Below are positions 16,971 through 55,671 of a stretch of 64,000 bases of DNA, one piece after another. The position numbers and the translations under genes were made by a program. The stretch covers positions 1 through 64,000 of the forward strand of contig NZ_AYXG01000099.1 in the NCBI RefSeq assembly GCF_000564855.1, written 5' to 3'. This DNA is from Actinokineospora spheciospongiae. GTDB lineage: Bacteria; Actinomycetota; Actinomycetes; Mycobacteriales; Pseudonocardiaceae. Within the stretch, counting starts at the first letter, position 1, and every line of letters starts with the position of its first letter. The notes beneath the pieces were generated by a model. It ran no database searches. It worked only from the letters and a program-made list of their open reading frames with translations, and was not told where the DNA came from.

Positions 16971-16981
16971 AGGAGGCGGCG

Positions 16982-17284
16982 GTGGATGGTTATGATGTCC
17001 TGTCCGGCGAACTGCGCGCACACGCCGCCAAAATGGATGCACTGGCCGAGCGACTCGGCGAGGCAGTGCACGCCGCCCGTACCGTGAGCATGGACGACGA
17101 CGCGTACGGGCAGTTCTGCCAGTTCCTTCCCGCTGTCATGCGGGGCATTGAGGATGAAGCCGGTGATGCGCTGACGGCGGGCACCAAGGGCATGGCCGAC
17201 ACCGCCACCAAAGTGAAGTACACCGCCGATGAGTACGATCAGCGTGAAGACGACACGGCGGTCACATTCGGGAACCTGCGGTGA
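16982..17284 (+). CDS. EspC-like type VII secretion target
   Basis: About 100 residues with two helices around a short turn. It begins VDGYDVLSGELRAHAAKMDALAERLGEAVHAARTV and continues through DDDAYGQFCQFLPAVMRG to a tail with YTADEYDQREDD. This resembles the ESX secretion-associated EspC family (short helical hairpin, YxxxD/E-like tail). It would be exported with, or act as partner for, the effector encoded next. Start GTG 16982 was chosen because AAGGAGG (16970-16976) is ideally spaced. It overlaps the following gene by GTGA. Confidence 0.75.
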   Translation: MDGYDVLSGELRAHAAKMDALAERLGEAVHAARTVSMDDDAYGQFCQFLPAVMRGIEDEAGDALTAGTKGMADTATKVKYTADEYDQREDDTAVTFGNLR

Positions 17285-18558
17285 CCGACACCAATCCGCT
17301 CATCGAGCCTGTCCAAGACAGCACGGAATGGTATTCCGGTGTTGGTGTCGCCGAGGCCGCAGCCGACATCAAGTCCGGCATCGAGAGCGGCAACTGGATT
17401 GACGTCGGCATTGGTTTCACAGGGGTCGGTCTCGAAGCACTGAGCATCGTCATTGATCCATTGGGATCGCTGACGTCCGCCGGTCTTTCGTGGCTGATCG
17501 AGCACGTCAAACCGCTGTCCGACGCGTTGGACTGGCTTGCGGGCAACGCCGACCTTGTCGCGTCGCATGCGGCCACCTGGAAGAACGTCGCCAAAGCAGT
17601 GGCAAACGTCCGCGACGACTACGTGCGTGACGTCGCGAACGACACCGGCGCGTGGCAGGGGCAAGCAGGGGATGCTTACCGGGCCGCCGCCGCAGGCAAC
17701 GCCGAAGTGCTCGGCGGTGCGTCCGCGGCAGCCGACGGGTTCGGCTCGGCTGTGGAGATGGCGGGCATCGTGGTCGCCGTCGTGCGTGAGGTCATACGAG
17801 ATCTGATCGCTGATCTCGTGGGACGGTTGATCTCTTGGGCCGCAGAGGTGGTGTTCACCCTGGGTCTGGCTACGCCGCTTGTGGTCGCGCAAGCATCCGC
17901 CGCCGTGGAGCGGTGGGCTGTGAGGATTGCCGGCATCCTCAAGAAACTGGCGCGCACGATGGACAATCTCCTCCCGTTGCTGCGCAGGCTCGGCGATGTG
18001 TTCGCACAGGTCCGCAAGGTACTGGACGACCTCAAGGCTCCAGCTCGATCGGGTGACGAGTTGCCGATCCCGGGCCAGACAGGCGGCGCCCGACCGGTGG
18101 ACGACGGGTCGTTGCGTGCTTACGACCGCATCGATCGCTGGGCGGAGAACGCGTACCAATCGATTCGCGAATCCGATGACGCAGCCGATGTCGCACGCCA
18201 CGTTCAGGGCGTGCCTCGGGCCGGGGGTCGCACCGGGTTCAGCCAGGCGGAAATCGAGCAGATCAAGAACCATGTGTTCGAGGACCTGCATCCGCTGGAG
18301 GGCGCCGACGGGGGCACGGTCATGGCCCGCTTCGACCCCAACCCGAACATGGCAGAAGCTTGGCTACGGCTGCGTTCGGGACGGGCGCGGTCAGAAGACA
18401 TCGCCCTGCTCGAACACGAACTCGCCGAGGCTAGATACTGGCAGCAGAACCCGAACGCCTCCTACCGGGAAGCACATGGGGCGGCCAACGAGGTGTCGCG
18501 GTGGGAGAACCAAGTCCCACCCGCATCCAATGAGGATTACAGCAAACCTTGGAGGTGA
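17281..18558 (+). CDS. WXG-fold type VII effector with unassigned C-terminal domain
   Basis: This 425-residue protein is a likely polymorphic toxin. Residues ~1-150 form a helical WXG100/PPE-like region with WQGQAGDAYR (WxG near residue 124). Residues ~158-205 are hydrophobic, a linker follows, and a C-terminal domain of about 120 residues starts near FSQAEIEQIKNHVF. That domain carries EHELAEARYW (about 378-387) and REAH (near 397), a His/Glu arrangement that could be catalytic. I cannot assign it to a known toxin family. No secretion machinery is encoded in the window, so export would rely on an ESX system elsewhere. The gene starts with GTG overlapping the EspC-like gene. Confidence 0.75.
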   Translation: MTDTNPLIEPVQDSTEWYSGVGVAEAAADIKSGIESGNWIDVGIGFTGVGLEALSIVIDPLGSLTSAGLSWLIEHVKPLSDALDWLAGNADLVASHAATWKNVAKAVANVRDDYVRDVANDTGAWQGQAGDAYRAAAAGNAEVLGGASAAADGFGSAVEMAGIVVAVVREVIRDLIADLVGRLISWAAEVVFTLGLATPLVVAQASAAVERWAVRIAGILKKLARTMDNLLPLLRRLGDVFAQVRKVLDDLKAPARSGDELPIPGQTGGARPVDDGSLRAYDRIDRWAENAYQSIRESDDAADVARHVQGVPRAGGRTGFSQAEIEQIKNHVFEDLHPLEGADGGTVMARFDPNPNMAEAWLRLRSGRARSEDIALLEHELAEARYWQQNPNASYREAHGAANEVSRWENQVPPASNEDYSKPWR

Positions 18559-18560
18559 GT

Positions 18561-18794
18561 GTGTTGGCGATGATCGTATACCTGCACAAGGAGCACGAGA
18601 CGGAAACCGAGGTGCGCTACCGGTTCCACCTGACCGACGGGGTGGATCGCCGGTTGGTGATGGACAAGCGAGCGGAGACCATCCAACCGGATGACGGCAA
18701 CCGGGACGGCGTGTTCCAAGCCGCGGCGAGCAAGTTGGCCAGGGCATGGCTCGACACGAAGATCGCACCCGAACGCTTGATCCACCAGAGCTGA
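18561..18794 (+). CDS. Small protein, probable immunity partner
   Basis: About 77 residues: a beta-rich start (MIVYLHKEHETETEVRYRFHLTDG), VMDKRAETIQPDDG, and a final helix AAASKLARAWLDTK. I do not recognise the family. It follows the effector by two bases, with GGAGG (18551-18555) overlapping the effector stop, so the two are co-expressed. A small acidic cytosolic protein right after a WXG effector is the usual place for an immunity gene. GTG 18561 is preferred; TTG 18564 and ATG 18570 are alternatives. Confidence 0.6.
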   Translation: MLAMIVYLHKEHETETEVRYRFHLTDGVDRRLVMDKRAETIQPDDGNRDGVFQAAASKLARAWLDTKIAPERLIHQS

Positions 18795-41268: not shown

Positions 41269-41411
41269 CGTGATCTCCTCGTGCGGCTGTCAGGGGGCGT
41301 ACCCGGCGACTCGGCCGGGGTCAGCCCCCGAGTCTAGGCGAGCACGCGCAGGTGGGGAGCCGGGGGTGCGCACGTGGAAAACGGCCGGTCCACGACCGGC
41401 CGTTTCAGCGG

Positions 41412-41482
41412 AGCGGGCGACGGGAATCGAACCCGCGTAGCTAGTTTGGAAGACTAGGGCTCTACCATTGAGCTACGCCCGC
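41412..41482 (-). tRNA. tRNA-Gly (anticodon TCC)
   Basis: A 71-nt cloverleaf on the minus strand: acceptor arms GCGGGCG/CGCCCGC, D arm GCTC...GAGC, anticodon loop CTTCCAA giving TCC, and T loop TTCGATT. The discriminator base is T (U). CCA is not encoded. Confidence 0.96.
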
Positions 41483-41551
41483 GTGCGCAGCGCTGTCGAG
41501 CGCTGCGTGGGCAACAGTAGCGGGTGGCGCTAGGCTCTGTGCGAAGTACCC

Positions 41552-41625
41552 CGGGCTGTGGCGCAGCTTGGTAGCGCATCCGCTTTGGGAGCGGAGGGTC
41601 GCAGGTTCAAATCCTGTCAGCCCGA
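41552..41625 (+). tRNA. tRNA-Pro (anticodon TGG)
   Basis: A 74-nt cloverleaf: acceptor CGGGCTG/CAGCCCG, D arm GCGC..GCGC, anticodon loop TTTGGGA with TGG, and T loop TTCAAAT. Discriminator A; CCA is not encoded. It is followed at once by an intrinsic terminator. Beyond it the conserved gene order is broken for about 14 kb. Confidence 0.96.
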
Positions 41626-41626
41626 C

Positions 41627-42482: not shown

Positions 42483-43511
42483 ATGACGCTGGCTTCCCGC
42501 GATCGCACGGACCTCCCCGAAGGGGCCATGCTGCTCGACTGCACGATCCGCGACGGTTCCTACGCGGTCGACTTCCAGTTCGAGGACGACTTCGCCGTCG
42601 AGCTGCTCGCCGGGCTGGGCGAGACCTCCGTACCGCTGGTGGAGATCGGGCACGGGCTCGGCCTGGAAGCGGAGCGGGCGGGGGTGCGGGCGTGCTCGAT
42701 CGCCGACGAGCGGTGGTGCGAGATCGCCGGGTCGACCCTGGGGGACAAGCAGTGGGGGATGTTCGCGCAGCCCTCGTTCACCCGGGTGTCCAGCATCGCC
42801 GCGATGTGCGACCGGGGCATGTCCTTCGTCCGGGTCGGCATGGAGGCCGAGAAGGTGGCCGACAACCTCGGCTACCTCGACGAGGTGGCCGACGCGTGCC
42901 CGCGGGTCTACCTGAACCTGATGAAGACCAGCGACACCGCGCTCGACCGGCTGCTGCCGATGCTCGAGGGCGTCCGCGACGACCTGGCCGGTGTGTACGT
43001 GGTCGACTCGCACGGCACCATGCTGCCCGCCGACGTGCGGGCCTACGTCAGCGCCGTCGCGCGGCACTTCGCCACCGTCGGCTTCCACGGGCACAACAAC
43101 CTGGGCATGGCCAACGTCAACAGCATCACCGCGCTGCAATCCGGGGCGCTGATCGCCGACGGCACGCTCAACGGAATCGGCCGCGGCGCGGGCAACGCCG
43201 AGCTGGAGTCGCTGGCGGGCATCATCGCCAAGACCGACCGCGACCGCTTCGGCTACCGGCAGCTCGCGCGGCTGGCGGAGTTCTGCCGGGCCAACATGCG
43301 CGTGGTGCCCGAGGACCGCACCATGCAGGTCTTCGGCGGCGTGATCGGCATCCACTCCGGCTACTTCCCGCTGGTCAGCGAGCTGTCGGAGAAGACGGCC
43401 ACCGACCCGGCCGTGCTGATGGAGACCGCGGCCGGGCTGACCGACCACAGCCCCACCAAGGACCACTTCCACCGGGCCGCCGCCCTGCTCGCCCACCGCG
43501 CCGCCGCCTGA
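42483..43511 (+). CDS. DRE-TIM aldolase (4-hydroxy-2-oxoacid aldolase/HMGL-like)
   Basis: The 342-residue TIM-barrel metallolyase shows LLDCTIRDGSYAVDF (RDG motif), metal-binding HGHNN in GFHGHNNLGMANVNS, and NGIGRGAGNAELESLAG. The C-terminal part (GIHSGYFPLVSELSEKTATD) resembles the DmpG/MhpE type. The family cleaves or forms 4-hydroxy-2-oxo acids from pyruvate and an aldehyde with a divalent metal. As the first gene of the operon, without catabolic partners such as acetaldehyde dehydrogenase, it probably works in the synthetic direction to build a chain. Confidence 0.85.
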   Translation: MTLASRDRTDLPEGAMLLDCTIRDGSYAVDFQFEDDFAVELLAGLGETSVPLVEIGHGLGLEAERAGVRACSIADERWCEIAGSTLGDKQWGMFAQPSFTRVSSIAAMCDRGMSFVRVGMEAEKVADNLGYLDEVADACPRVYLNLMKTSDTALDRLLPMLEGVRDDLAGVYVVDSHGTMLPADVRAYVSAVARHFATVGFHGHNNLGMANVNSITALQSGALIADGTLNGIGRGAGNAELESLAGIIAKTDRDRFGYRQLARLAEFCRANMRVVPEDRTMQVFGGVIGIHSGYFPLVSELSEKTATDPAVLMETAAGLTDHSPTKDHFHRAAALLAHRAAA

Positions 43512-43547
43512 CGCGCCCACCCCGACCAGCGAAGGAGGACAACGATC

Positions 43548-44381
43548 GTGAGGCTCACCAAGTCCGGGGCAGGCGGCGTCCTGGTGCGGCACGACGACCA
43601 GTGGTACGCGGTGGACCGGGTCGACGGGTTCGCGGGCACCTCCCGCGCCTGCGACCTGCTCACCGGGGACCGGCCCGCGCGGCTGGCGGGCGCGCTCGAC
43701 CGGGCGGTCGGGTCGCTGCGGCCGGTCCCGGTGGACCTGGCCGGGGCGCCAACGGTCGCCGACGGCGGGGCGGACATCTGGGGCGCGGGCCTGAACTACC
43801 GCAAGCACTCCCAGGACCTGGAGACCACGCAGCCCACGTCCGGGCCGGGGTCCTACCTGCGGCCCAACGGGTGCCTGATCGACAACGGCGCGCACATCGA
43901 GCTGCCCACCCGGTCCGAGCGCATCACCGCGGAGGCCGAGCTGGGGCTGGTGCTCGGCACCGGGGCCAAGGACGTGCGGCGCGAGGACTGGCGGTCGGTC
44001 GTGGCCGCGGTGACCACCGTGCTGGACATGACGGCCGAGGACGTCATCCGGGAGAACCCGCGCCACATCCCCTGGGCCAAGGGCTTCGACACCTTCTGCA
44101 GCATCGGGCCGGTGCTGGTGACCGTGGACGAGTTCACCGACGCCGACCTCGCCGGGCTGCGGGTGTCGACCGTCCGCAACGGCGAGACCATCGCCTCGGC
44201 CACCCCCGCGGACATGATGTACGACATCGGGTTCCTGGTGGAGTACTTCTCGGCGGGGCGGACCCTGCGGCCGGGCACCGTGATCTGCACGGGCACCCCC
44301 GGCGCCGCCGTCATCCGGACCGGCGACCTCGTCGAGGCCGTTGTGGACGGCGTCGGCGCCCTGTCGCACCCGGTCAAGTAG
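43548..44381 (+). CDS. Fumarylacetoacetate hydrolase family protein (hydratase-like)
   Basis: The 277-residue protein of the FAH/2-keto-4-pentenoate hydratase fold shows GAGLNYRKHSQDLE, metal ligands in AEAELGLVLG (ExE) and the C-terminal TPADMMYDIGFLVEYFSAGRTLRPGTVICTGTPG. Members hydrate, dehydrate, decarboxylate or hydrolyse 2-oxo acids with Mg2+. Next to an aldolase, dehydration of a 4-hydroxy-2-oxo acid is a reasonable guess. The GTG start has AAGGAGGA eight bases upstream. Confidence 0.85.
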   Translation: MRLTKSGAGGVLVRHDDQWYAVDRVDGFAGTSRACDLLTGDRPARLAGALDRAVGSLRPVPVDLAGAPTVADGGADIWGAGLNYRKHSQDLETTQPTSGPGSYLRPNGCLIDNGAHIELPTRSERITAEAELGLVLGTGAKDVRREDWRSVVAAVTTVLDMTAEDVIRENPRHIPWAKGFDTFCSIGPVLVTVDEFTDADLAGLRVSTVRNGETIASATPADMMYDIGFLVEYFSAGRTLRPGTVICTGTPGAAVIRTGDLVEAVVDGVGALSHPVK

Positions 44382-44404
44382 CGGCGACCGGGGAGTCGGG
44401 AACC

Positions 44405-45166
44405 ATGCGACACCAGGGAAAGCGCGCCCTCGTGCTGTGCGGGACGCGCGGCATCGGCGCCGGGGTCGCGCTCAGCCTCGCGCGCCGCGGTGCGGCGGTC
44501 ACGGTGTCCGGTCGCGACGCGGACCGCGCCGCGGCCGCCGCGGCCGGGTTGCCCGGGACCGGGCACGGGTCCTTCGCCTGCGACTTCGCCGACCCCGCCG
44601 GGGTCGCCGCGGCCGTGGCGGCGGCGGGTCCGTTCGACATCGTGCTGCTCAACACGCCCGGGCACCCGCCGGGCCCGGTGGACGAGCTGTCCGCCGAGGG
44701 GCTGCGGTCGGCGTTCGAAACGATGCTGCTGCCGGTGCGGGGCGTCGTGGACGCGGTCCTGCCCGGGATGCGGCGCAACCGGTGGGGGCGGCTGATCGCC
44801 ATCACCTCCAGCTCGGTGGACGTGCCGATCCCCGGCCTGGCCGGGTCCACCGTGGTCCGCTCGGCGGTGCGCTCCTACCTCAAGCTGCTGGCCGAGAGCG
44901 CCGGGCCGGACGGCGTCACGGTCAACCACGTGATCCCCGGGAAGGTCGACACCGACCGGTTGCGGTCGGCCGACGCCGCGGCGGCCCGGCGGGCGGGCAC
45001 CAGTCCCGACGCCGTGCGGGCCGCCACCCTGGCCGAGATCCCGGTCGGCCGCTACGGAACCCCGGACGACGTCGGCGAACTGGTGTCCTTCCTGGCCGGT
45101 GACGCCGCCGCCTACATCACCGGCACCGGCATCCGCTGCGACGGCGGATACGTGCGGGCGTTCTGA
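44405..45166 (+). CDS. Atypical SDR lacking the Tyr-Lys pair
   Basis: The 253-residue Rossmann protein has the cofactor loop CGTRGIGAGVAL. The NNAG site is replaced by NTPGHPPGP, and the region after the conserved Ser (ITSSSVDVPIPGLAGSTVVRSAV) has S-T-V-V-R where YxxxK is expected. This resembles the FabG-like SDR subgroup known to lack the Tyr. The C-terminus GTGIRCDGGYVRAF is standard. It may reduce by an altered mechanism or be structural. It lies 23 bases after the FAH gene. Confidence 0.85.
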   Translation: MRHQGKRALVLCGTRGIGAGVALSLARRGAAVTVSGRDADRAAAAAAGLPGTGHGSFACDFADPAGVAAAVAAAGPFDIVLLNTPGHPPGPVDELSAEGLRSAFETMLLPVRGVVDAVLPGMRRNRWGRLIAITSSSVDVPIPGLAGSTVVRSAVRSYLKLLAESAGPDGVTVNHVIPGKVDTDRLRSADAAAARRAGTSPDAVRAATLAEIPVGRYGTPDDVGELVSFLAGDAAAYITGTGIRCDGGYVRAF

Positions 45167-45214
45167 CCCGTTCCCGAACCCCACCCCCACCGCCACGGAA
45201 AGTGAGCTGAGACC

Positions 45215-46861
45215 GTGCTGAGCCGAGACCTGCCCATCGTGGACCGCATCGACCTGGTCGTGCGGGAGCACCCGGACGCCGACGCCCTGGCCACCCCCGA
45301 GCGCACCCTCACCTACCGGGAGTTCGGGAAGTACGTGGAGGAGTTCGCCCTCGAACTCGAGCGGCGCACCGCGCCGGGGGAGTTCGTCGGGATCGAGGCC
45401 GACCGCCGGGCGGGCTCGATCGTGGCCATGATCGGCGCGCTGCGCGCCGGGCGCCCCTTCGTCTTCCTCGACCCCCGCGACAGCGAGGCGTCGAACTCGG
45501 CCAAGGCGGGCCTGCTGGGCGTGCGGCTGCTCGCCCGCTGCCTGCCCGGGCAGCAGGACCCGGACCTGGTGCCCGCCCGGTGGGCGACGGCGGCGGGCCA
45601 CTCCCCCGCCGGGCTCGACGAGGTCAGGTCCGAACTGGCCTACGCCATCCACACCTCCGGTTCCACCGGTGAACCCAAGTGCGTGCTGGTGCGCGCCGCC
45701 GCGCTGGTCCCGGTGGTCCACGACCACGTCGAGCGGCTGGAGGTGGGCCCGGGCTGCCGCACGCTGCAGTTCGCCCGGCTCACCTTCGACGGCTGCGTCA
45801 CCGAGATCCTGTGGACGCTGACCTCCGGTGCCTGCCTGGTCGTGGTGGACGAGTCGCTGCTGACCCCCGGCCCGGTGCTGGGCGGCACCCTGGAGCGCTT
45901 CGGCATCACCCACGTCAAGACCACCCCGTTCGCGCTGACCGCCACCGAACCCGGCCCCGGCACGGCGCTGCGGCACGTGCTCAACGGCGGCGGGGCGTGC
46001 AGGCCATCGGTGGTGCGCCGGTGGTCCGCGGTGGCCGCCTTCCACAACGCCTACGGCACGACCGAGACCACGATCTGCAACCTGCTCAGCGACCCGCTGG
46101 ACCCGGGGAGCTGCGCGTCGGAGGTGCCGCTGGGCGAGCGGGTCGGCGACTGCGGGCTGCGCGTCGACGGTGAGGGCGGTCGCGGGGAGCTGGTGGTGAC
46201 CGGGAACAGCGTCGCCGTCGGCTACCTCGCCGAGGACGGCGTCCGGCCCTTCGGCGACGAGTACCGCACCGGTGACGTCGTGGAGGAGCGCGAGGACGGG
46301 CTGCACTTCGTCGAGCGGGTCGACCGGCAGGTCAAGGTGCGCGGCTACCGGGTGGACCCCGGCGAGGTGGAGAACGCGGTGTGCGGGCTGACCGGTGTCC
46401 TGGACGCGGTGGTCGTGGCCGAGGCGCACGACGGTGGCGACGCCGCCGCCGACGCCCTGGTCTGCTACTTCCGGGGCGGGGTCAGCCCCCGGGCGCTGCG
46501 CGAGCACCTGGAGTCCACCCTGGACCCGTACAAGGTGCCCTCGGTGCTCACCCGCGTCGAGGAGTTCCCGCACACCCCCAACGGCAAGGTCGACCGCGAC
46601 GCGCTGCGCGCCGACCGCCGGGCGGGGGCGGGCGGCGGGTCCGGCGGCGACCCCGTGCTGGAGCTGGTGCACGGGCTGACCGGCATCGACGACGTCACGC
46701 TGGACGACAACTTCTTCGACGTCGGCGGCGACTCGGCCTCGGCGGTCGTGTTGGTGACCAGGCTCAAGGAGCTGGGCTGGGTGGACGTGGGGGTGCGCGA
46801 CGTGCTGCGCGCGGACACCCTGCGCGACCTGTCCGAGCGGCTGCCCGAGCGGAGCGTGTAG
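45215..46861 (+). CDS. NRPS-like adenylation-PCP didomain protein
   Basis: The 548-residue protein activates a carboxylic acid as AMP ester and loads it on its own carrier domain. A domain: A3 HTSGSTGEPK near 146, A5 NAYGTTE near 276, A7 YRTGD, A8 RVDRQVKVRGYRVD near 368 and A10 NGKVDR near 455. By alignment with GrsA, the Asp that binds the alpha-amino group is retained (FDGC), so an alpha-amino acid is likely. The code residues do not match one I know. A PCP follows (about 475-548), with phosphopantetheine Ser507 in VGGDSAS. There is no condensation or thioesterase domain. Confidence 0.93.
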   Translation: MLSRDLPIVDRIDLVVREHPDADALATPERTLTYREFGKYVEEFALELERRTAPGEFVGIEADRRAGSIVAMIGALRAGRPFVFLDPRDSEASNSAKAGLLGVRLLARCLPGQQDPDLVPARWATAAGHSPAGLDEVRSELAYAIHTSGSTGEPKCVLVRAAALVPVVHDHVERLEVGPGCRTLQFARLTFDGCVTEILWTLTSGACLVVVDESLLTPGPVLGGTLERFGITHVKTTPFALTATEPGPGTALRHVLNGGGACRPSVVRRWSAVAAFHNAYGTTETTICNLLSDPLDPGSCASEVPLGERVGDCGLRVDGEGGRGELVVTGNSVAVGYLAEDGVRPFGDEYRTGDVVEEREDGLHFVERVDRQVKVRGYRVDPGEVENAVCGLTGVLDAVVVAEAHDGGDAAADALVCYFRGGVSPRALREHLESTLDPYKVPSVLTRVEEFPHTPNGKVDRDALRADRRAGAGGGSGGDPVLELVHGLTGIDDVTLDDNFFDVGGDSASAVVLVTRLKELGWVDVGVRDVLRADTLRDLSERLPERSV

Positions 46862-46863
46862 CC

Positions 46864-48642
46864 GTGTGCGGCATCTGCGGCACCTTCGCCCCCGGCGGCG
46901 ACCCCGACCGGACCCTCAGCGCCACCATGGTCCGCCGCATCACCCACCGCGGCCCGGACGAGGTCTACTCGCTCAACACCCCCTCGGTGTCGATGAAGCT
47001 GGCCCGGCTGGGCATGACCGGCCTGGTGCACGGCTGGCAGCCCGCCGAGGACCGCTCCGGCCGGTTCGTGGCCATGACCAACGGCGAGATCTACAACGCC
47101 GCGCGGCTGCGGCGCGAGCTGGGCGGCGACGACTGGGCCAACACCGTCGACGTCGCCGTCGTGCCGGAACTGGTGGCGCGGCACGGCGTGGCCGGGTTGG
47201 CCAGGATCGACGGGCAGTTCGCCACCGCCGTGCTCGACCGGGCCGAGAACGCGCTCTACCTGGCCAGGGACCGGTTCGGGGTGTGCCCGCTGCACTACAC
47301 CGGCGTGGGCGGGCAGGTGCACTTCTGCTCGGAGATCAAGGCGCTGGTGACCACCGTGCCCGGTCCGTGGCGGGTCGACCACACCGCGGTGGACCAGTAC
47401 CTGTCGCTGGGCAACGTCGTCGCGCCGCGCACCCTGGTGCGCGACGTGCGCGCCGTCCCGCTCGGCTGCGCGGTCCGGTTCGACGCCGACGGCCAGGAGA
47501 CGATCCGCTACTGGCGCTACGGCGGGTTCACCGCCGGGGAGGACGTGCCCGCCGAGGAGCTGCGCGAGCGCGTGCGGACCGCGGTCGGCGACCGCCTCAC
47601 CGCGGACGTGGAGATCGGCGCCTACCTCAGCGGCGGGTTCGACTCCTCCACCATCGTGGTGGAGGCCGCGCGGCTGCTGGAGAAGCCGCCCAAGACCTTC
47701 TCGGTGGTCTTCGACGACGCCGCGCTCGACGAGGGCCGCTTCCAGCGGGTGGTCGCCGAGGTGGCGGGCAGCGAGCACCACCAGGTGCGGTGCACCGCCG
47801 CGGACGTGGCGGGCGAGTTCGAGGCGATGGTGCGGCACTGCTGCTACCCGCAGCGCGAGACCTACAACGTCGCCGCGCTGATGCTCTCCAGGGAGGTCGG
47901 CTTCGCCGGGGTCAAGGGCGTGGTGTCGGGGGAGGGCGCCGACGAGCTGTTCTTCGGCTACGACTCCTACGTCTTCGACGCCGCCCGCCGCAAGCCGCCC
48001 ACCGCCCGCGAGGAGAACGCCTCGGCGTGGGGCAGGGCCGACTTCGGCTGGGAGGTCGACTGGGCGCGGCTGGCCGCGCGCAAGGAGGCCTGCCTGGCCC
48101 CGGAGGCGGCGGAGGCGGTGGCGGGCCGGGAGTTCTGGCGCGACCGCCTGGTGCCGCTCACCGACGCCGAGGCCGCCGCGCTGACCCCGATGCAGCTGCG
48201 GTCGGTGGCCGACGTGCACGTCCAGCTCGCCGGGCACCTGCTCGGCGACCACGGCGACTCGATGCTCATGGCCAACTCCATCGAGGGCCGCTACCCGTTC
48301 CTGGGCAACGGCGTGGTGGACGCGGCGCTGCGCGTGGCCGACGAGCGCAAGGTCGCCGACTTCGAGGGCAAGGCCTGCCTGAAGCAGGCCTACGCGGGGC
48401 TGCTGCCCGAGTCGGTGCTGCACCGGGCCAAGCAGGGCTTCACCGCCCACGGCCTGACCGCCGTGGCCGACGGGCCGACGCTGACCAGGTGGCGCGACCT
48501 GGTGGCGGCCAGCGGGCTGTTCCGGCCCGACGCCCTCGACGCCCTGGACGGGCTCGCCGCGCGACGGCCCGACAAGTGGGACGTGCGGCTTAGCGTGATC
48601 AGCATCAGCACCGTCGTCGACGAACTGGGGTTGCTGCCATGA
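46864..48642 (+). CDS. Asparagine-synthase-like glutamine amidotransferase
   Basis: This class II amidotransferase has 592 residues. Cys2 (MCGICGTFAPGG) is the nucleophile after Met removal, and HRGPDE, NGEIYN and DGQFA show an intact glutaminase domain. The synthetase domain has the ATP loop YLSGGFDSS near 254-262 and SGEGADELFFGY. It should amidate a carboxylate via an acyl-AMP using glutamine, or (as in beta-lactam synthetases, which lack the Cys) close a ring; the intact Cys favours amidation. GTG start two bases after the A-PCP stop. Confidence 0.9.
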   Translation: MCGICGTFAPGGDPDRTLSATMVRRITHRGPDEVYSLNTPSVSMKLARLGMTGLVHGWQPAEDRSGRFVAMTNGEIYNAARLRRELGGDDWANTVDVAVVPELVARHGVAGLARIDGQFATAVLDRAENALYLARDRFGVCPLHYTGVGGQVHFCSEIKALVTTVPGPWRVDHTAVDQYLSLGNVVAPRTLVRDVRAVPLGCAVRFDADGQETIRYWRYGGFTAGEDVPAEELRERVRTAVGDRLTADVEIGAYLSGGFDSSTIVVEAARLLEKPPKTFSVVFDDAALDEGRFQRVVAEVAGSEHHQVRCTAADVAGEFEAMVRHCCYPQRETYNVAALMLSREVGFAGVKGVVSGEGADELFFGYDSYVFDAARRKPPTAREENASAWGRADFGWEVDWARLAARKEACLAPEAAEAVAGREFWRDRLVPLTDAEAAALTPMQLRSVADVHVQLAGHLLGDHGDSMLMANSIEGRYPFLGNGVVDAALRVADERKVADFEGKACLKQAYAGLLPESVLHRAKQGFTAHGLTAVADGPTLTRWRDLVAASGLFRPDALDALDGLAARRPDKWDVRLSVISISTVVDELGLLP

Positions 48643-50045
48643 CCGGGCGGATGGGCACGGGGTGGGACGCGGTGATCGGCGACGACCGGTGGCGGTCGTC
48701 GGAGGTGCTGTGGGTCGAGGGCGGCACCGAGCACTCCTGGCGGCGGGTCGACGAACTCGCCGCCGGGGTCGAGGCCGCCGTCCGGGCCGCCCCGGGGACC
48801 GTGGTGGTGCTGGTGCGGGCGGCGAGCAGGCTGGGCGCGTTCGCGGGCCAGCTCGGCGCGTGGCGGGCGGGCCGGGTGGTCGCGGTCGACGACGGCCTCG
48901 GTCCCGCCGAGCTGGCCAGGATTCGCCCCGACCTGGTGCTCTCGGTGCCGGTGGACGGGCCGCCCGAGGTCGTCGAGGTGGCGGCGGGCGGGCTGCCCGC
49001 CGACCGGCTGCCCCCCGAGGTGGTGGCGGTCAACTTCACCTCCGGCAGCACCGGTGCCCGCAAGGCCGTGGCGGTCACCCGGGGCAACCTGGCCGCGCTG
49101 TTCGGCTGCCGCGGTCTCGACGTCCCGGTCGAGGGCAGGCTGGTGGCCGCCAACTTCGCCTCCCCCGCCTACGACGGCTGGTGGTTCGACACGTGGAAGA
49201 CCGCCGCCGTGGGCGGGGTGGTGGTCTGCCTGCCGAAGGTGACCGACGACGTGTTCGCCTGGCCGGAACTGGTCGAGCGGTACGGCGTGCACCGGGTGCT
49301 GCTGCCCGCGGCCGTCGTGGCGACCCTGGTCCAGTCGCTGCCCGAGTGCGTCGAGGACATCCCGTGGGTGTTCAGCGGCGGCGAGCGGTTCCGCGTCGCC
49401 ACCGTCCGGCAGGCCCGGGACGCCGGTCTGGCCACCCGCTTCGTCAACCTGTACGGGCCCACGGAGGCGACCTTCGCCACGCACGGGCACGTGCTGCCCG
49501 CCGACCCCACCGGGCTGGCCGAGATCCCGATCGGGACCCCGCTCGACGGTTGCGCGCAGCGGCTGGAACAGCGCGACAACGGCACCGAACTGGTGGTCAG
49601 CGGCCCGGTGGTGTGCCTGGGCTACCTCGACCACGGGCGGGTGGTCGACCGCTTCCCCACCGAGGGCGGGCACGCGGTCTACCGCACCGGGGACCTGGTG
49701 CGCCCCGACCCGGACGGCGCGCTGGTCTTCGTCGCCCGACTGGACAGCCAGGTCAAGGTCAACGGCGTTCGGGTGGACACCGCCGCGCTGGAGACCGAGG
49801 TGACCGCGCTGCCCGGGGCGGCCGACTGCCGGGTCGTGCAGGACGGGGCGGACACCGTCGCCTTCGTCCGCGTCGGCGGGCCGGGGACCTCGCCCACCGA
49901 GGTCGAGCCGGTCGTCAAGCGCTTCTCCCCCGCGATCGCGGTGGAGCTGCTCGACGGCTTTCCCGTCAAGGACGGCGGGAAGGTCGACGCCAGGGCACTC
50001 ATGGAGCTGTACCGCACGAGGACAAGGACCGGAGAGCATGTCTGA
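48639..50045 (+). CDS. Stand-alone adenylation domain
   Basis: The 468-residue amino-acid-activating protein shows A3 FTSGSTGARK near 131, A5 NLYGPTE near 270, YRTGDLVRPD, A8 RLDSQVKVNGVRV near 367 and the terminal DGGKVDA with the catalytic Lys. Asp of the amino-binding site is retained (AYDGWW). The N-terminal ~100 residues are shortened compared with usual A domains. It probably loads the free carrier protein encoded next. The ATG overlaps the amidotransferase stop (ATGA). Confidence 0.9.
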   Translation: MTGRMGTGWDAVIGDDRWRSSEVLWVEGGTEHSWRRVDELAAGVEAAVRAAPGTVVVLVRAASRLGAFAGQLGAWRAGRVVAVDDGLGPAELARIRPDLVLSVPVDGPPEVVEVAAGGLPADRLPPEVVAVNFTSGSTGARKAVAVTRGNLAALFGCRGLDVPVEGRLVAANFASPAYDGWWFDTWKTAAVGGVVVCLPKVTDDVFAWPELVERYGVHRVLLPAAVVATLVQSLPECVEDIPWVFSGGERFRVATVRQARDAGLATRFVNLYGPTEATFATHGHVLPADPTGLAEIPIGTPLDGCAQRLEQRDNGTELVVSGPVVCLGYLDHGRVVDRFPTEGGHAVYRTGDLVRPDPDGALVFVARLDSQVKVNGVRVDTAALETEVTALPGAADCRVVQDGADTVAFVRVGGPGTSPTEVEPVVKRFSPAIAVELLDGFPVKDGGKVDARALMELYRTRTRTGEHV

Positions 50046-50271
50046 CATCACCACGAAAATGATCATCGACTGCGTGCGCGAGGTCGCCAGGCGCGACGTC
50101 TCGGGCGACACCGACATCTTCACCGCGGGCGTGGACTCCCTCGCCGTGCTGCGCTGCCGCGCCCTGCTGAAGAAGTGGACCGGGGTCAAGGTGCCCGGTC
50201 ACGTGTTCTTCGGCGGGCGCACCCCCGAGGGGATCGTCGACCTGATCGGAGCCGACAATGCTGGTCGTTGA
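50038..50271 (+). CDS. Stand-alone carrier protein (PCP/ACP)
   Basis: The 77-residue phosphopantetheine carrier has Ser34 in FTAGVDSLAVLR as the attachment site. It overlaps the adenylation gene by eight bases and the P450 gene by fourteen, so stoichiometric co-translation of A domain, carrier and P450 is likely. It holds the activated amino acid as thioester for oxidation. Confidence 0.92.
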   Translation: MSDITTKMIIDCVREVARRDVSGDTDIFTAGVDSLAVLRCRALLKKWTGVKVPGHVFFGGRTPEGIVDLIGADNAGR

Positions 50272-51490
50272 GGACAGCCCGCTCTACTCCGCGGAGTTCT
50301 TCGCCACGGGCGACCCCTGGTCGTACCTGGCGCAGCTGCGCCGGGAGGCCCCGGTGTCGCTGCACCGGCGGGCCGACGGGTACGAGTTCTACGCCCTGAC
50401 CAAGCACGCCGACGTCCACGCCGCCTACGTCGACCACACCCGGCTCAGCTCCGCCTACGGCACCATGGTCGACGGCTCCTACCTGCCGCGCAAGGACTCC
50501 GCCTCCGGCCGGATGCTCATCGTCGCCGACCAACCCGAGCACGCGGCCATCAAGAAGCCGGTCAAGGCGGGCGGCTTCAACCGCACCATGCTCGCCCGCA
50601 TCGGCGAGACGGTCCGCCGCAACATCCGCACCGCGCTGGACGGGTTGGCCGTCGGCGACCGGGTCGACTTCAGCCGGGTGGTGGCCCCCGCGCTGCCGAT
50701 GGGCGTGCTGGAGGTGCTCTTCGGCATCGGGGCCACCGACGCCGGGCACCTGCTGGAGCGGACCCGCACGATGATCGGCTACCGGGACGCGGCCTACGTC
50801 GGCGGCTCCTCGCTGGACTCGCTGGTCGACGCGCAGCTGGAGGTGCTCGACTTCATCGAGGAGCTGATCGACGACCGGATCGCCTCCGGGGCCGACGACG
50901 ACATGATCGGCATGCTCGCCCAGCTGGTGGCCTCCGGGGCGATGTCGCGCGACGTGGCCCTGCTCAACGGGCTCAACGTCGCCGTCGGCGGCAACGAGAC
51001 CACCCCGCACACCGCGAGCCTCGTCGTCACCACCATCGACGCCGAGCGCGACCAGTGGCGCGGGGTGGTCGACGGCCGGGTCGGGGCGGACGTGGCGACC
51101 CAGGAGTTCCTGCGCTGGACCTCCACCAACAGCTACGTGCAGCGGCTGTCGGTCGCCGACTTCGAGGTGGGCGGGCAGGTCATCCCGGAGGGCAGCTTCG
51201 TGACCCTGTGGAACATGTCCGCCAACCGCGACGAGGACGTGTTCGAGCGGCCGGACGAGTTCGTCGTGGACCGCCGGGACAACAAGCAGATCGCCTTCGG
51301 CGCGGGCATGCACCGCTGCATCGGCGCACCGGTGGCCACCCTGGAGGTCCAGACCTTCGTCGAGGAGCTGGCCGAGTGGGACAGGGCCTTCGAGGTGGTG
51401 GCACCGCCGCGCAGGCTGTACTCGAACTTCATGCTCGGCCTCACCGAGCTGCAGGTCGAGGTGGTCAAGGCGAAGGCCTTGGTCGCGTGA
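50258..51490 (+). CDS. Cytochrome P450 of the operon
   Basis: This 410-residue haem monooxygenase has haem-binding FGAGMHRCIG with Cys354 and an ExxR-region helix. Its I-helix is VAVGGNETTPH, in which the usual acid-alcohol pair is replaced by Asn-Glu-Thr-Thr. Its position directly after a free adenylation domain and carrier protein parallels systems in which a P450 beta-hydroxylates a carrier-bound amino acid (NikQ, NovI). That role is inferred. No redox partners are encoded here. Confidence 0.92.
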   Translation: MLVVEDSPLYSAEFFATGDPWSYLAQLRREAPVSLHRRADGYEFYALTKHADVHAAYVDHTRLSSAYGTMVDGSYLPRKDSASGRMLIVADQPEHAAIKKPVKAGGFNRTMLARIGETVRRNIRTALDGLAVGDRVDFSRVVAPALPMGVLEVLFGIGATDAGHLLERTRTMIGYRDAAYVGGSSLDSLVDAQLEVLDFIEELIDDRIASGADDDMIGMLAQLVASGAMSRDVALLNGLNVAVGGNETTPHTASLVVTTIDAERDQWRGVVDGRVGADVATQEFLRWTSTNSYVQRLSVADFEVGGQVIPEGSFVTLWNMSANRDEDVFERPDEFVVDRRDNKQIAFGAGMHRCIGAPVATLEVQTFVEELAEWDRAFEVVAPPRRLYSNFMLGLTELQVEVVKAKALVA

Positions 51491-52215
51491 GCGGGTCCGC
51501 CGGTGCGGCGCCGCTGATCGCCTCCTTCCCCGCGGCGGGGGCGGGCAGCACCAGCCTGGCCTGGTTGACCCCGATCGCCGCCGCGCGCGGGGCGCAGCAC
51601 CTGCCGCTGGCCACCCCGTCGAGCACCGCCGAGTTCCACTCGGGACGGTGGCTCGACGCGGTGGTGGACGCGGTCGGGGGCGCCGCCGGGCGGACCGGTG
51701 CCGACAGCGTGGTCCTGGTCGGGCACAGCATGGGCGGTCTCGCCGCGCTGCTGGCCGCCCGCGCCCTGCGCGCGGACTTCCCGGTCGGCGTCCTGGGGAT
51801 CAACCCGCCCTGCCCCGACGCGGAGGGGCGCATCCCCACGATGTCGGCGTCCGACGACGCCGAGATCGCGCGCATCCTCGGCGGGGACGGCTTCCCGGCC
51901 GAACTGCTCGACGACGAGGAACTGCTCGCCGAGGTCGCCGACGGGGTCCGCGCGGACGCCGAGGTCGCCGACGAGCTGGCCGTGCGGGTCGCCGGGATGG
52001 GTGACGTGGGCCCGCTGTGCGTGCTGGCCACGCGCGGGGACGCGTTCATCGGCGTCCGGCACTGCCTGCGGTGGCGGGAGCGCTCCCGGAGTGGTCTGGA
52101 CCTCATCGAGGCGGACGGTTCGCACATGCTGACCGGAACCCCCGGCCATATCCTCGAGCGCGCAGTGGACTCGGTGGTCGCCTCGGTGCGAAGGGATGTC
52201 GCGTGGAGAAGCTGA
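51487..52215 (+). CDS. Type II thioesterase-like alpha/beta hydrolase
   Basis: The 242-residue protein has the N-terminal SFPAAGAGSTSLAWL (GrsT-like oxyanion loop), nucleophile elbow GHSMGGLAAL and C-terminal His in DGSHMLTG. It could release the product or an intermediate from a carrier, or remove misloaded groups. The GTG start overlaps the P450 stop (GTGA). It extends thirteen bases into the permease gene. Confidence 0.85.
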   Translation: MSGSAGAAPLIASFPAAGAGSTSLAWLTPIAAARGAQHLPLATPSSTAEFHSGRWLDAVVDAVGGAAGRTGADSVVLVGHSMGGLAALLAARALRADFPVGVLGINPPCPDAEGRIPTMSASDDAEIARILGGDGFPAELLDDEELLAEVADGVRADAEVADELAVRVAGMGDVGPLCVLATRGDAFIGVRHCLRWRERSRSGLDLIEADGSHMLTGTPGHILERAVDSVVASVRRDVAWRS

Positions 52216-53519
52216 AGCAGTCGATGGGCGGGTTCGTGGGGACCTTCGTCGCCCTGTCGACCATCCTGGGCAGCGGGATGATGATCCTGCCCGGAATGAG
52301 CTACCACCGGCTCGACACCGCGGCCTGGCAACCGTGGGCGATCGCCGCGCTCTCGGTGATCCCCCTGCTGTACTGCTACGCCTGGCTCGGCCGCCGCCAC
52401 CCCGCCGCGTCCGGGGTCGCCCACTACGCCGAGGTGGCGCTGGGCAAGCCGGTGGGGCGCACCTCGGGCATGCTGGCGGCCCTCGCGCTGGTCACCGGCA
52501 TCCCGGCCACCGCCATCACCGGCGGGTTCTACCTGGCGGAGTTCTCCGGGATCGGGGTGCTGGCGTGGGTGTTCCCGCTGCTGGTCCTGGTCGGCGCCAC
52601 CTTCGTCGCCGCGGCGGGGGCGTCGTTCTCCGGCAGGTTGCAGGTGGGCCTGATCCTGGCGCTGTTCGCGCTGATCCTGGCGACGGCGGTGGCGGCCATC
52701 GGGGAGCACGGGCCGCGCCCGCCCGCGCTGGAGGTGCCCGGGATCGGCGCGCTGGGCTCGGTCCTCACGGCGGTGTACGTGGCGTTCACCGGGTGGGAGA
52801 CCGTCGCCTTCACCTTCGAGGAGCACAAGCGGTCCGACCTGATCCCGCGCATCTTCGCCGCGTCCTACGTGATCGTGATCACCCTGTACGGGCTGCTGCT
52901 GCTGGGCCTGTTCGCGGCCGTGGACTCCGGCGAGGACGCCCTGGAGTCCGCCCCGCTGCTCGTCCTCGCCGACCGCGCCTTCGGCGACCTGGGCCGCCCG
53001 GCGGCGGCGGTGCTGGTGGTCGCGTGCATCACCGCCAACGTGTGCGCGTCCGTCCTCGCCCTGTCGCGGCTGGTCTTCGGCATGGCGCGCAGCGGTTTCC
53101 TGCCCGCCGCGCTGAGCAGGGTCCGCGCGCACGACCGCAACCCGATCACGGCGGTGGTGGCCGTGGGGTGCGTCCTCACCGTGATCGCGGTGCTGGGCGC
53201 CATGGACCTGTTCCCCTTCGAGTTCCTGTTCATCCTCTCCGGCGGTGTCTACTTCGTCCTCTACGGCGTCGGCGCGGCGGCGTTCACCCGCCTGGCCTCC
53301 GGCCCGTCCCGCATCGCCGTCGGCGCCGTGTGCGCGGTGGTGGTCGTCGGCGTGACGGTGATCGCGGGTCCGTCGATGTGGTTGAGCTGGGCGGTTTTCG
53401 CGGTGACCCTCCTGGTCGTCGTCCTGGTCGCCCGCTTCTCCCGCCGAGCCGCGGTCGCCACCCCCGCCGCCGACGACCCCACCCCCGCACTCCGCGAAAC
53501 CACCAGGGAGAAGACATGA
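52203..53519 (+). CDS. APC superfamily amino-acid permease
   Basis: The 438-residue membrane protein has about 12 hydrophobic helices. The first begins FVALSTILGSGMMILPG, the APC substrate-binding GSGxxxLPG motif. AVYVAFTGWETVAFTFEEHK and SRLVFGMARSGFLPAALSRV are typical of the family. It lies between two thioesterases in the operon, so it probably exports, or imports a precursor of, an amino-acid-like product. The start GTG has AAGGGA upstream. The C-terminus is a disordered Pro/Thr tail. Confidence 0.92.
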   Translation: MEKLKQSMGGFVGTFVALSTILGSGMMILPGMSYHRLDTAAWQPWAIAALSVIPLLYCYAWLGRRHPAASGVAHYAEVALGKPVGRTSGMLAALALVTGIPATAITGGFYLAEFSGIGVLAWVFPLLVLVGATFVAAAGASFSGRLQVGLILALFALILATAVAAIGEHGPRPPALEVPGIGALGSVLTAVYVAFTGWETVAFTFEEHKRSDLIPRIFAASYVIVITLYGLLLLGLFAAVDSGEDALESAPLLVLADRAFGDLGRPAAAVLVVACITANVCASVLALSRLVFGMARSGFLPAALSRVRAHDRNPITAVVAVGCVLTVIAVLGAMDLFPFEFLFILSGGVYFVLYGVGAAAFTRLASGPSRIAVGAVCAVVVVGVTVIAGPSMWLSWAVFAVTLLVVVLVARFSRRAAVATPAADDPTPALRETTREKT

Positions 53520-54190
53520 GCCGCACCCTGCCGCGCTACGCCCTGTTCCCCGGGGCGGGTTCCTTCGGCGGCGAGTTCGCCCCCCTCACCGACACGCTGG
53601 GCCGCCGGGAAACCCGCCTGATCAAGTACCCGGGCCGCTTCGGCAGCAGCTTCGGCGAACACCCCGACACCCTCGACGAGGTGATCGAGTCCGCCACCGA
53701 CCAGGCCGCGGCGCTGCCCGCCCCGGTCCTGGTCGCCCACAGCTACGGCGCCTACGTCGCGCACGCCGTCGCCTGCAACCTCACCGAGCGGGGAACACCG
53801 CCCGCCACGCTGATCGTCACCGGCGCCTCGGCCCCCGAACTCCTGTCGGTGCCCCCCGTCGCCAGCCCGGCGGAGGTGGCCACCTACCTGGACGACACCG
53901 ACCCGACCGCGCTGGCCACCGCGCCCTCGCCGGACTGGCGCGAGGTGGTCATCGAGACGACGGCCAACGACCTGCGCCTCCTGCGCGGGCTCACGCCGCC
54001 CGCGACCGCGCTGACGTGCCCCGTCTCGGCGATCCGGGGCAGCCGGGACGGGTTGACCACCGACGAGTCCATCGCGTTGTGGTCGAACGCCACGAACGGC
54101 TCGTTCACCACGCACACGGTGCCCGGCGGGCACTCGGCCCCGTTGCGCTCCACCGAGTTCCCGCCGTGGGTGACCGCCCGCTGCGCCTGA
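53516..54190 (+). CDS. Second type II thioesterase
   Basis: The 224-residue protein has LFPGAGSFGGEF, IKYPGRFGSSFGE, nucleophile AHSYGAYVAH and catalytic His in GGHSAPL. These are features of the TE II family (PF00975-like) that edit carrier proteins. The ATG overlaps the permease stop (ATGA). It is the last gene of the operon. It is not a close copy of the first thioesterase. Confidence 0.88.
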   Translation: MSRTLPRYALFPGAGSFGGEFAPLTDTLGRRETRLIKYPGRFGSSFGEHPDTLDEVIESATDQAAALPAPVLVAHSYGAYVAHAVACNLTERGTPPATLIVTGASAPELLSVPPVASPAEVATYLDDTDPTALATAPSPDWREVVIETTANDLRLLRGLTPPATALTCPVSAIRGSRDGLTTDESIALWSNATNGSFTTHTVPGGHSAPLRSTEFPPWVTARCA

Positions 54191-54348: not shown

Positions 54349-54722
54349 ATGACCGTGATGGAGAACGCCCTGGCGACCGCCGTGTTGGTGGTCGACGACG
54401 CCGGGTTGGTGCTGATGGTGGACCGCGGCGGGCGGCTGGAGCTGCCGACCGGGGCCGCGCGGACCGGGGAGACCGTCGTCGCGGCGGCGGCGCGGGCGGT
54501 GCTGGCGCAGACCGGGGTGGTGGTGGCGGGGGCGTCGCTGGTGGGGTTGGACAGCGCGGGTGAGTTCGCGGTGGTGCTGCGGGCGCGGCCGGTGGACGGG
54601 ACCTCGCCGACGGGGCCGAGTGGGTGGAGCCGGAGCGGCTCGGGGAACTCGCGCTGGCGCCGGGCGTGCAGGAGCGGGTGGAGCGCGGGCTCGACGAAGC
54701 CGGACTGCCGTACCTGCGGTAG
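54349..54722 (+). pseudogene. Nudix-like protein A (frameshifted)
   Basis: It begins MTVMENALATAVLVVDDAGLVLMVDRGGRLELPTG and continues through a Nudix-box region, GAARTGETVVAAAARAVLAQTGV, in which the catalytic acids are lost (R-A-V-L-A-Q). After LRARPVDG the frame slips near 54600. A matching C-terminus (ADGAEWVEPERL...ERGLDEAGLPYLR) continues one frame over to a TAG at 54720. Restoring one G in the GGG run repairs it. It is a paralogue of 55333-55671 about 1 kb downstream. Confidence 0.7.
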
Positions 54723-55332: not shown

Positions 55333-55671
55333 ATGACGATGATCGGGAGTGGGCTCGTCGCGACCGTGCTGGTCGTGGACGGGGCCGGGTCGGTGTTGGT
55401 GGTCGCCCGGAACGGGTCGCTCGAACTGCCCTCCGGGGTGGTTCGGGTCGGGGAGGCCGTGGTCGAGGCTGCCGCCCGGGTGGTGGCCGAGCAGACCGGG
55501 GTCGCTGTCGGGGACGTGGAGGTGGAGGGGCTCGACGGGGAGGAGGAGTTCTCCGTGCTGTTGCGGGCCAGACCGGCTGGTGGGGATGTGGCCGGTGGGG
55601 GTCGCTGGGTCGCGGTCGGCGAACCTGGCGGCGAGATGGCCGGGGTACGGGTCCGGCGCTGGGGCGTCTGA
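55333..55671 (+). CDS. Nudix-like protein B with degenerate Nudix box
   Basis: This 112-residue protein begins MTMIGSGLVATVLVVDGAGSVLVVARNGSLELPSG. In the Nudix-box position it reads GVVRVGEAVVEAAARVVAEQTGV; against GX5EX7REUXEEXGU the first Glu of REUXEE is Val and the last is Gln, so metal-dependent hydrolysis may be lost. It is paralogous to the frameshifted copy at 54349, including similar sequence just before the start. The C-terminus is shorter than in copy A. It is perhaps a binding-only Nudix fold. Confidence 0.65.
   Translation: MTMIGSGLVATVLVVDGAGSVLVVARNGSLELPSGVVRVGEAVVEAAARVVAEQTGVAVGDVEVEGLDGEEEFSVLLRARPAGGDVAGGGRWVAVGEPGGEMAGVRVRRWGV

What the first reader, a model, noticed from the sequence alone, without database searches (positions are those of the whole stretch)
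42483..54190. Unrecognised eleven-gene carrier-protein pathway
Aldolase, FAH hydratase, atypical SDR, A-PCP, intact amidotransferase, free A domain, free PCP, P450, TE, amino-acid permease and TE form one coupled operon. There is no condensation or ketosynthase domain, regulator or obvious resistance gene. That suggests a small product (modified amino acid, amide or dipeptide-like) rather than a classical peptide, and I know no characterised cluster with this set.
Basis: partly seen in the sequence, partly recalled or inferred. Interest (0 to 1): 0.8.

Follow-up and report, generated by a model that had tools for sequence, protein, structure and literature searches.

The report
Two-station amino-acid modifying gene cluster
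This stretch holds a real, conserved set of genes, shared by scattered actinobacteria, that appears to build an unusual small amino acid or two-amino-acid compound on two small carrier proteins; the product is unknown, and I found no description of this gene set.

Summary
All eleven genes exist at 42483-54190, on a ~13.6-kb insertion beside tRNA-Pro, found in 1 of 16 genomes of the genus. With 19 loci (window included) the set splits into parts. AsnB is in 19 of 19 and follows A-PCP. Aldolase and FAH behave as a pair: one genome has lost both. Free A, free PCP, P450, TE1 and permease form a cassette, in 15 of 19 loci but absent from four minimal clusters. The SDR is accessory and lacks its catalytic YxxxK. 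This pattern suggests that each carrier protein has its own thioesterase. 'No condensation domain' holds for the window, but 6 of 19 loci carry a nearby C-(A)-PCP gene and one an ATP-grasp gene. In the three with both cassette and C-protein, that protein's own A domain is degenerate or deleted; in the three without cassette it is intact. So the free A may load in trans, and the family probably makes a dipeptide or its building blocks. The P450's nearest solved relative suggests beta-hydroxylation. Substrates and product are unknown; literature searches gave no paper that I recognised as describing the set. Verdict: real; new variant of a known kind.

The parts
42483..43511 (+). DmpG-like (HMGL family) aldolase; at the positions of the BphI-type His20 and Tyr290 it has Tyr27 and His291
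   Evidence: Pfam PF00682; 119 vs cut-off 286 bits for the 4-hydroxy-2-oxovalerate aldolase equivalog; PDB alignments; alignments A1 and A4; fold search
43548..44381 (+). FAH-superfamily protein (hydratase/tautomerase/acylpyruvase-like)
   Evidence: PF01557 152 bits; PDB matches include HpcE-type and FAHD1 proteins
44405..45166 (+). Atypical SDR without the YxxxK pair; accessory
   Evidence: motif absent in 8 of 8 sequences aligned; not found in the seven Streptomyces loci where that region is held, L030-L036
45215..46861 (+). A-PCP didomain, station 1
   Evidence: PF00501 + PF13193 + PF00550; pocket residues nearly invariant in 9 aligned loci
46864..48642 (+). AsnB-type glutamine-dependent amidotransferase, Cys2 and SGGFDS loop present
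   Evidence: TIGR01536 325.5 bits vs cut-off 267.1; alignment A2
48639..50045 (+). Free-standing adenylation domain, station 2
   Evidence: PF00501; TIGR01733 171 bits, below its cut-off 317; pocket residues conserved in 15 of 15 loci except V/L/I and A/T changes
50038..50271 (+). Free-standing PCP, station 2, with DSL attachment serine
   Evidence: PF00550; DSL invariant in 15 of 15
50258..51490 (+). Cytochrome P450; best solved match 4l0e/4pwv (that these are P450sky is recalled)
   Evidence: 206 bits; heme Cys motif invariant in 15 of 15
51487..52215 (+). TE1, thioesterase of the cassette (GHSMGG)
   Evidence: PF00975/PF12697; no match in the four minimal clusters
52203..53519 (+). Amino-acid permease; best curated model an amino-acid transporter (PRK11021), below its cut-off
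   Evidence: PF13520; NF008245 118 vs cut-off 284
53516..54190 (+). TE2, thioesterase that travels with A-PCP/AsnB
   Evidence: PF00975; PDB matches include RifR; found in 18 of 19 loci, not in L164
41663..55236 (.). Inserted segment with the operon and an extra NUDIX gene (54349-54699), between tRNA-Pro (41552-41626) and the resident NUDIX gene (55333-55671)
   Evidence: in relative L154 the same flanks are 332 bp apart; ends are those of BLAST matches, so approximate

Best explanation
The operon is a two-station, carrier-protein pathway for a small modified amino acid or dipeptide. Station 1: the A-PCP protein loads amino acid X on its own carrier, AsnB puts an amide nitrogen from glutamine on a carboxylate of the carrier-bound or released intermediate, and TE2 releases or proof-reads it; the aldolase/FAH pair builds or extends the carbon skeleton from a 2-oxo acid and an aldehyde. 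Station 2: the free A loads amino acid Y on the free PCP, the P450 hydroxylates it (probably at the beta carbon), TE1 releases it, and the permease exports product. In some relatives a C-(A)-PCP protein could join the two, and where the free A exists that protein's own A domain has decayed or been deleted, so the free A most likely loads it in trans and a dipeptide results. The window branch lacks that gene, so it makes the free modified amino acid(s), or borrows another condensing enzyme. Shown: gene set, synteny, modularity, insertion, residue conservation, A-domain decay. Inferred: every reaction, the order of steps, substrates and product.
For: Ten genes in the same order in 13 of 15 cassette-bearing loci. 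Four minimal clusters keep aldolase-FAH-A-PCP-AsnB and lack the whole cassette; three of them keep TE2. C-(A)-PCP alignment: A domain intact in L134, L162, L164 (no cassette), degenerate in L036 and deleted in L021 and L038 (with cassette). L132 has an ATP-grasp gene (PF13535 above cut-off) downstream of TE2. P450 best matched by 4l0e/4pwv. Published proposals, backed by gene inactivation in one of them, for discrete A/PCP/P450/TE making beta-hydroxyleucine: PMC3943440 and PMC5031334 (passages). AsnB intact. An AsnB-type enzyme is needed for the carboxamide of siderochelin: PMC11481915 (passages).
Against: The A-PCP pocket, read by eye, is not of the acidic-residue type, so what AsnB amidates is unclear. 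L038 keeps AsnB but its genome has no aldolase match at 1e-40 and only a 31% FAH, so the pair is not needed for every product of the family. The window genome has no close homologue of the relatives' C-PCP protein (best 42%). The 3-against-3 A-domain contrast is small and the loci are related; Pfam still matches AMP-binding in the degenerate L036 domain (105 bits); C domains of the two groups are 43-45% identical, near the 42-44% of other NRPS. The SDR's role is unexplained.
Confidence: 0.5

Rival explanations
1. Precursor supply only: the operon makes non-proteinogenic amino acids that are released by the TEs and used by one of the many large NRPSs elsewhere in the genome.
For: Discrete A/PCP/P450/TE genes are proposed to have this role in polyoxypeptin and aurantimycin; the window genome holds many condensation domains (37 matches at 1e-40).
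Against: The set is a compact island with its own amino-acid transporter, and flanking gene families differ between most of the loci compared; no shared large NRPS was seen beside them in the stretches held.
Confidence: 0.25
2. AsnB is the joining enzyme: like lasso or beta-lactam cyclases of its superfamily it forms an amide between the two released amino acids, so no condensation domain is needed.
For: AsnB is in 19 of 19 loci, with or without a C domain; the second PDB match, 7ylz, is named hydroxyamidotransferase, so the superfamily can use other nitrogen donors.
Against: The glutaminase Cys is conserved, which favours ammonia transfer; AsnB persists where C or ATP-grasp genes exist.
Confidence: 0.1
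3. A remnant operon, with no present product in this strain.
For: No condensation gene, no obvious resistance gene, single occurrence among the 16 genus genomes.
Against: All eleven reading frames are open and the motifs inspected are intact except in the SDR; mean identity to nine other loci is 47-75% gene by gene with order kept.
Confidence: 0.07

Closest known systems
Discrete beta-hydroxyleucine genes of polyoxypeptin (PlyQ/PlyR/PlyS) and aurantimycin; passages of PMC3943440 and PMC5031334 seen
   Same: Stand-alone carrier protein, P450 (PlyR, reported 37% identical to NikQ), stand-alone thioesterase, free A domain.
   Different: There they feed a large PKS-NRPS; here no such partner is in the operon, and A-PCP, AsnB, aldolase, FAH and permease are joined to them. 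No sequence comparison made.
Nikkomycin-type genes (NikP1/NikQ/NikP2 with aldolase NikB and ATP-grasp NikS); recalled, a search returned no paper
   Same: As recalled: DmpG-like aldolase, A-PCP, PCP-dependent P450 and TE in one pathway to a dipeptide-like product.
   Different: As recalled: nucleoside genes and a partner dehydrogenase there; AsnB and a second A/PCP here. Not compared by sequence.
Siderochelin SidA (AsnB-type), passages of PMC11481915 seen
   Same: AsnB-type enzyme required for a carboxamide on a small metabolite.
   Different: The terms aldolase, P450, adenylation and fumarylacetoacetate do not occur in that paper's text; it describes a PKS-derived scaffold.
4-hydroxy-2-oxovalerate aldolase (DmpG/BphI/HsaF)
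   Same: Best sequence and fold matches; the RDG motif and the paired histidines, recalled as metal and pyruvate site, are kept (Asp24 is Glu in L134).
   Different: His20/Tyr290 positions exchanged, no partner acylating dehydrogenase gene in the operon, far below equivalog cut-off.

Membership tests
Carrier-protein-dependent beta-hydroxylation cassette | Stand-alone A and PCP with attachment serine | tested here: met
Carrier-protein-dependent beta-hydroxylation cassette | P450 nearest to a PCP-dependent hydroxylase, heme Cys present | tested here: met
   4l0e/4pwv best PDB match; motif; that these entries are P450sky is recalled
Carrier-protein-dependent beta-hydroxylation cassette | Hydroxylation of aminoacyl-PCP | not testable with these tools
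   needs enzymology
Canonical modular NRPS cluster | Condensation domain in the cluster | tested here: not met
   none among ten of the eleven proteins scanned (the eleventh is the SDR) or the scanned flanking genes; best genome match to the relatives' C-PCP 42%
Dipeptide family with C-(A)-PCP or ATP-grasp partner | Nearby condensing or ligating gene | tested here: not met
   met in 6 of 19 loci by C proteins and in 1 of 19 by ATP-grasp, not in the window
4-hydroxy-2-oxovalerate aldolase | Equivalog score cut-off | tested here: not met
   TIGR03217 119 vs 286 bits
4-hydroxy-2-oxovalerate aldolase | Active-site His20 and Tyr290 (BphI numbering) | tested here: not met
   Tyr27 and His291 at the aligned positions (register to BphI is mine), invariant in A1 (9 sequences) and A4 (10); Tyr290's role: passages of PMC3962088; His20's role recalled
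AsnB glutamine-dependent amidotransferase | Equivalog score, Cys nucleophile, ATP loop | tested here: met
   325.5 vs 267.1 bits; Cys2 and SGGFDS
Classical SDR | Catalytic YxxxK | tested here: not met
   absent in 8 of 8 sequences aligned

The most novel reading that the evidence does not exclude
The aldolase with exchanged His/Tyr residues and the FAH protein act on a carrier-bound aminoacyl thioester rather than on a free aldehyde, adding a pyruvate unit to give an aminoacyl-pyruvate that AsnB turns into a keto-amide: a carbon-carbon chain extension on a peptidyl carrier without any ketosynthase.
Probability: 0.1. Interest if true: 0.85.

Novelty: new variant of a known kind. Interest (0 to 1): 0.55.

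Why it matters
It defines an apparently undescribed family of compact, small-molecule pathways that could be mistaken for incomplete NRPS fragments because many members lack a C domain. The relatives give a natural series (minimal core, core plus C-A-PCP, core plus cassette plus C-protein with a decayed A domain, core plus cassette alone) that makes it directly testable how a loading function moves from a fused to a free-standing A domain. The aldolase with exchanged catalytic positions is a candidate for new carbon-carbon bond chemistry.

Tried and rejected
Idea that the eleven genes are one indivisible pathway: rejected, parts separate in relatives. Idea that the A-PCP activates an acidic residue (to explain AsnB), for example on the way to 4-hydroxy- or 4-methyleneglutamine: not favoured, the pocket read by eye against recalled GrsA positions is hydrophobic; low confidence. 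Siderochelin as the same cluster: passages read, not the same. Products of producer strains: a search with one strain name and two cluster terms listed 15 of 105 papers, of which only siderochelin was followed; nitropeptin as a recalled lead, one paper mentions the word (listing only), dropped. Solanimycin: only a P450 model hit far below its cut-off, not followed. Plasmid records: best-ranked aldolase 32% and A-PCP places 34-36%, no orthologue among those listed (12 of 381 and 12 of 1600 records; all records below 60%). G526, the 32% aldolase: no other operon gene beside it, dropped. tRNA-end repeat as an attachment site: only short, chance-level matches. Transcription signals: no sigma-70-like promoter, terminator-like sites at chance level; one arbitrary palindrome pattern gave 0 matches and says nothing. 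TTA codons: none in the eleven genes. AlphaFold model of the aldolase: mean pLDDT 65.7 with low confidence at both exchanged residues, so it supports the DmpG-like fold but not their geometry.
Full report
Observation. The window is high-GC DNA (65-76% in 2-kb steps). Between 42483 and 54190 lie eleven genes on the + strand: aldolase, FAH, SDR, A-PCP, AsnB, free A, free PCP, P450, TE1, permease, TE2. Six of ten junctions overlap. To the left lie clpX, two clpP genes and tig with tRNA-Gly and tRNA-Pro, to the right NUDIX, Fpg-like and aldehyde dehydrogenase genes.

Boundaries. In the same-genus genome G007 (L154) the left flank matches up to window position 41662 and the right flank from 55237, and only 332 bp separate them. 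The operon plus one extra NUDIX gene is therefore a ~13.6-kb insertion beside tRNA-Pro. Of 16 genus genomes only the window's own has the free A gene at ortholog level. I looked at this site in five of the 15 other genus genomes: L154 is empty with the window's gene order; in L155-L157 the tRNA pair stands the other way round relative to tig and spacings differ; in L153 neither tig nor a tRNA lies within the 19.9 kb fetched. The site is thus variable.

Relatives. With the free A protein I searched 61 genomes (12 matched at 1e-30, of which only the window and G044, 67%, are ortholog-like; the rest are 32-39%), 390 family genomes (5 at 1e-50, the window included), 394 genomes drawn from the class (the window only) and genome contigs (77 loci, of which 12 at 55-63% identity were kept and 65 at 23-36% dropped as other A domains). 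One search shows all ten non-SDR genes in one order in 13 of 15 (the window's own). L029 is cut by its contig end, and its genome holds the aldolase (63%) on another contig. L038's genome has no aldolase match at 1e-40 and only a 31% FAH. The SDR is present in the window, the three Actinopolyspora loci and G408; it was not found in L021, L038 or L030-L036, and L029 does not hold the region.

Minimal clusters. Aldolase searches: 394 class genomes gave 4 matches at 1e-45, namely the window, G050, G607 and a 32% one in G526 that has no other operon gene beside it; 200 genomes of the family of G607 gave 3 at 1e-60, G607 itself, G874 and G952; 150 of the family of G050 gave only G050 itself. The four loci L132 (G607), L134 (G050), L162 (G874) and L164 (G952) have aldolase-FAH-A-PCP-AsnB and no cassette. 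TE2 follows AsnB in three; in L164 it was not found and the next open frame carries a PP-loop motif. An SDR at 40-43% identity lies near three of them (L134/L135, L162, L164). In an unrooted tree of A-PCP plus AsnB, drawn with midpoint rooting, these four form one group with 100% support (18 of 19 loci; L029 left out).

Joining enzymes. L134, L162 and L164 each carry a C-A-PCP gene (the latter two 79% and 62% identical to that of L134) and an MFS gene nearby; L021 and L038 carry C-PCP and MFS, L036 a C-A-PCP. L132 has, after TE2, a gene that reads like a FAD/NAD-binding oxidoreductase (by eye, not scanned) and an ATP-grasp gene, whose match to an L-amino-acid-ligase C-terminal domain is below that model's cut-off. 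In the alignment the A domain is intact in L134, L162 and L164, has lost its ATP-binding motifs in L036 (although Pfam still matches AMP-binding there at 105 bits), and is deleted to a stub in L021 and L038. The last three are those with the free A cassette. The contrast is 3 against 3 and the loci are not independent; C-domain identity between the groups (43-45%) is close to that of other NRPS (42-44%), so common descent of these genes is possible but not proven. C-A-PCP + MFS pairs without the core exist in G408 and G808 (L165, L166). In the 12 loci with cassette and no C gene, only about 2-6 kb either side of the core was held for most, the window excepted; but a whole-genome search with L038's C-PCP found nothing better than 44% in 11 of those 12 genomes, the exception being the G408 place just named, about 540 kb from its core.

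Co-inheritance. Pairwise protein distances of ten genes over ten taxa correlate at r = 0.79-0.97 in all 45 gene pairs (permutation p at most 0.003). Five of 15 loci were left out: L105 and L107 (near copies of L104), L029 and L038 (genes missing), L031 (faulty gene end in my script). Shared species history contributes to this.

Enzymes. AsnB passes its equivalog cut-off and keeps the Cys nucleophile and ATP loop. The P450's best solved relative is 4l0e/4pwv. The aldolase aligns best with 4jn6 and 4lrs; at the positions that I take to be BphI His20 and Tyr290 it has Tyr27 and His291, invariant in the nine sequences of A1 and the ten of A4. Tyr290's role in BphI is described in PMC3962088 (passages); that of His20 is recalled. 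The FAH protein is closest to HpcE- and FAHD1-like proteins. The A pockets, read by eye against recalled GrsA positions, are D-G-T-F-(V/L/I)-G-A-(V/I)-C-K for A-PCP and D-G-F-(A/T)-(V/L/I)-S-L-F-A-K for the free A; I do not assign substrates from them. The SDR lacks YxxxK in 8 of 8 sequences aligned.

Interpretation. The way the parts separate suggests that each carrier has its own A and TE: TE2 with A-PCP/AsnB, TE1 with the P450 cassette. Published discrete A/PCP/P450/TE sets are proposed to make beta-hydroxy amino acids. I propose that the family makes a beta-hydroxylated, amide-bearing dipeptide or its parts, with the window branch making the parts or using a condensing enzyme from elsewhere. 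The chemistry of aldolase, FAH and AsnB on specific substrates remains inference.

Literature. Searches for the gene set: searches returned no paper, 47 two, 61 eight, 50 330 with 25 listed; judged by titles and abstract starts (and passages of two), none describes it. A search for nikkomycin genes returned none. The library lacks most subscription journals, so this is weak evidence of novelty.

Noticed in passing
window 41410-41626 and L153-L157: The tRNA-Gly/tRNA-Pro site beside tig-clpP-clpX is variable in the genus: L154 is empty, L155-L157 have the tRNA pair the other way round with other spacings, and L153 shows no tig or tRNA within 19.9 kb but an A-domain gene about 32% identical to the A-PCP.
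   Followed up: partly
window 54349-54699 and 55333-55671: NUDIX gene present twice, 70% DNA identity over 299 bp; relative L154 has one copy, so the extra one came with, or arose at, the insertion.
   Followed up: partly
window 16967-18794: Patch at the low end of the window's GC with an EspC-like gene (above Pfam cut-off) and a WXG100-like gene (just below it).
   Followed up: no
L038 59-1786: EPSP-synthase-family protein of 575 aa near the cluster in Actinacidiphila; longer than I would expect for AroA (recalled).
   Followed up: no
L164 after 14803: Open frame with a PP-loop motif (GGGKDS) soon after AsnB, where TE2 is expected.
   Followed up: no
L165 10150-15411 and L166 9476-18605: C-A-PCP plus MFS pairs (about 50-56% identical to those beside the core) without the aldolase/A-PCP/AsnB core: perhaps a wider family of small NRPS systems.
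   Followed up: partly
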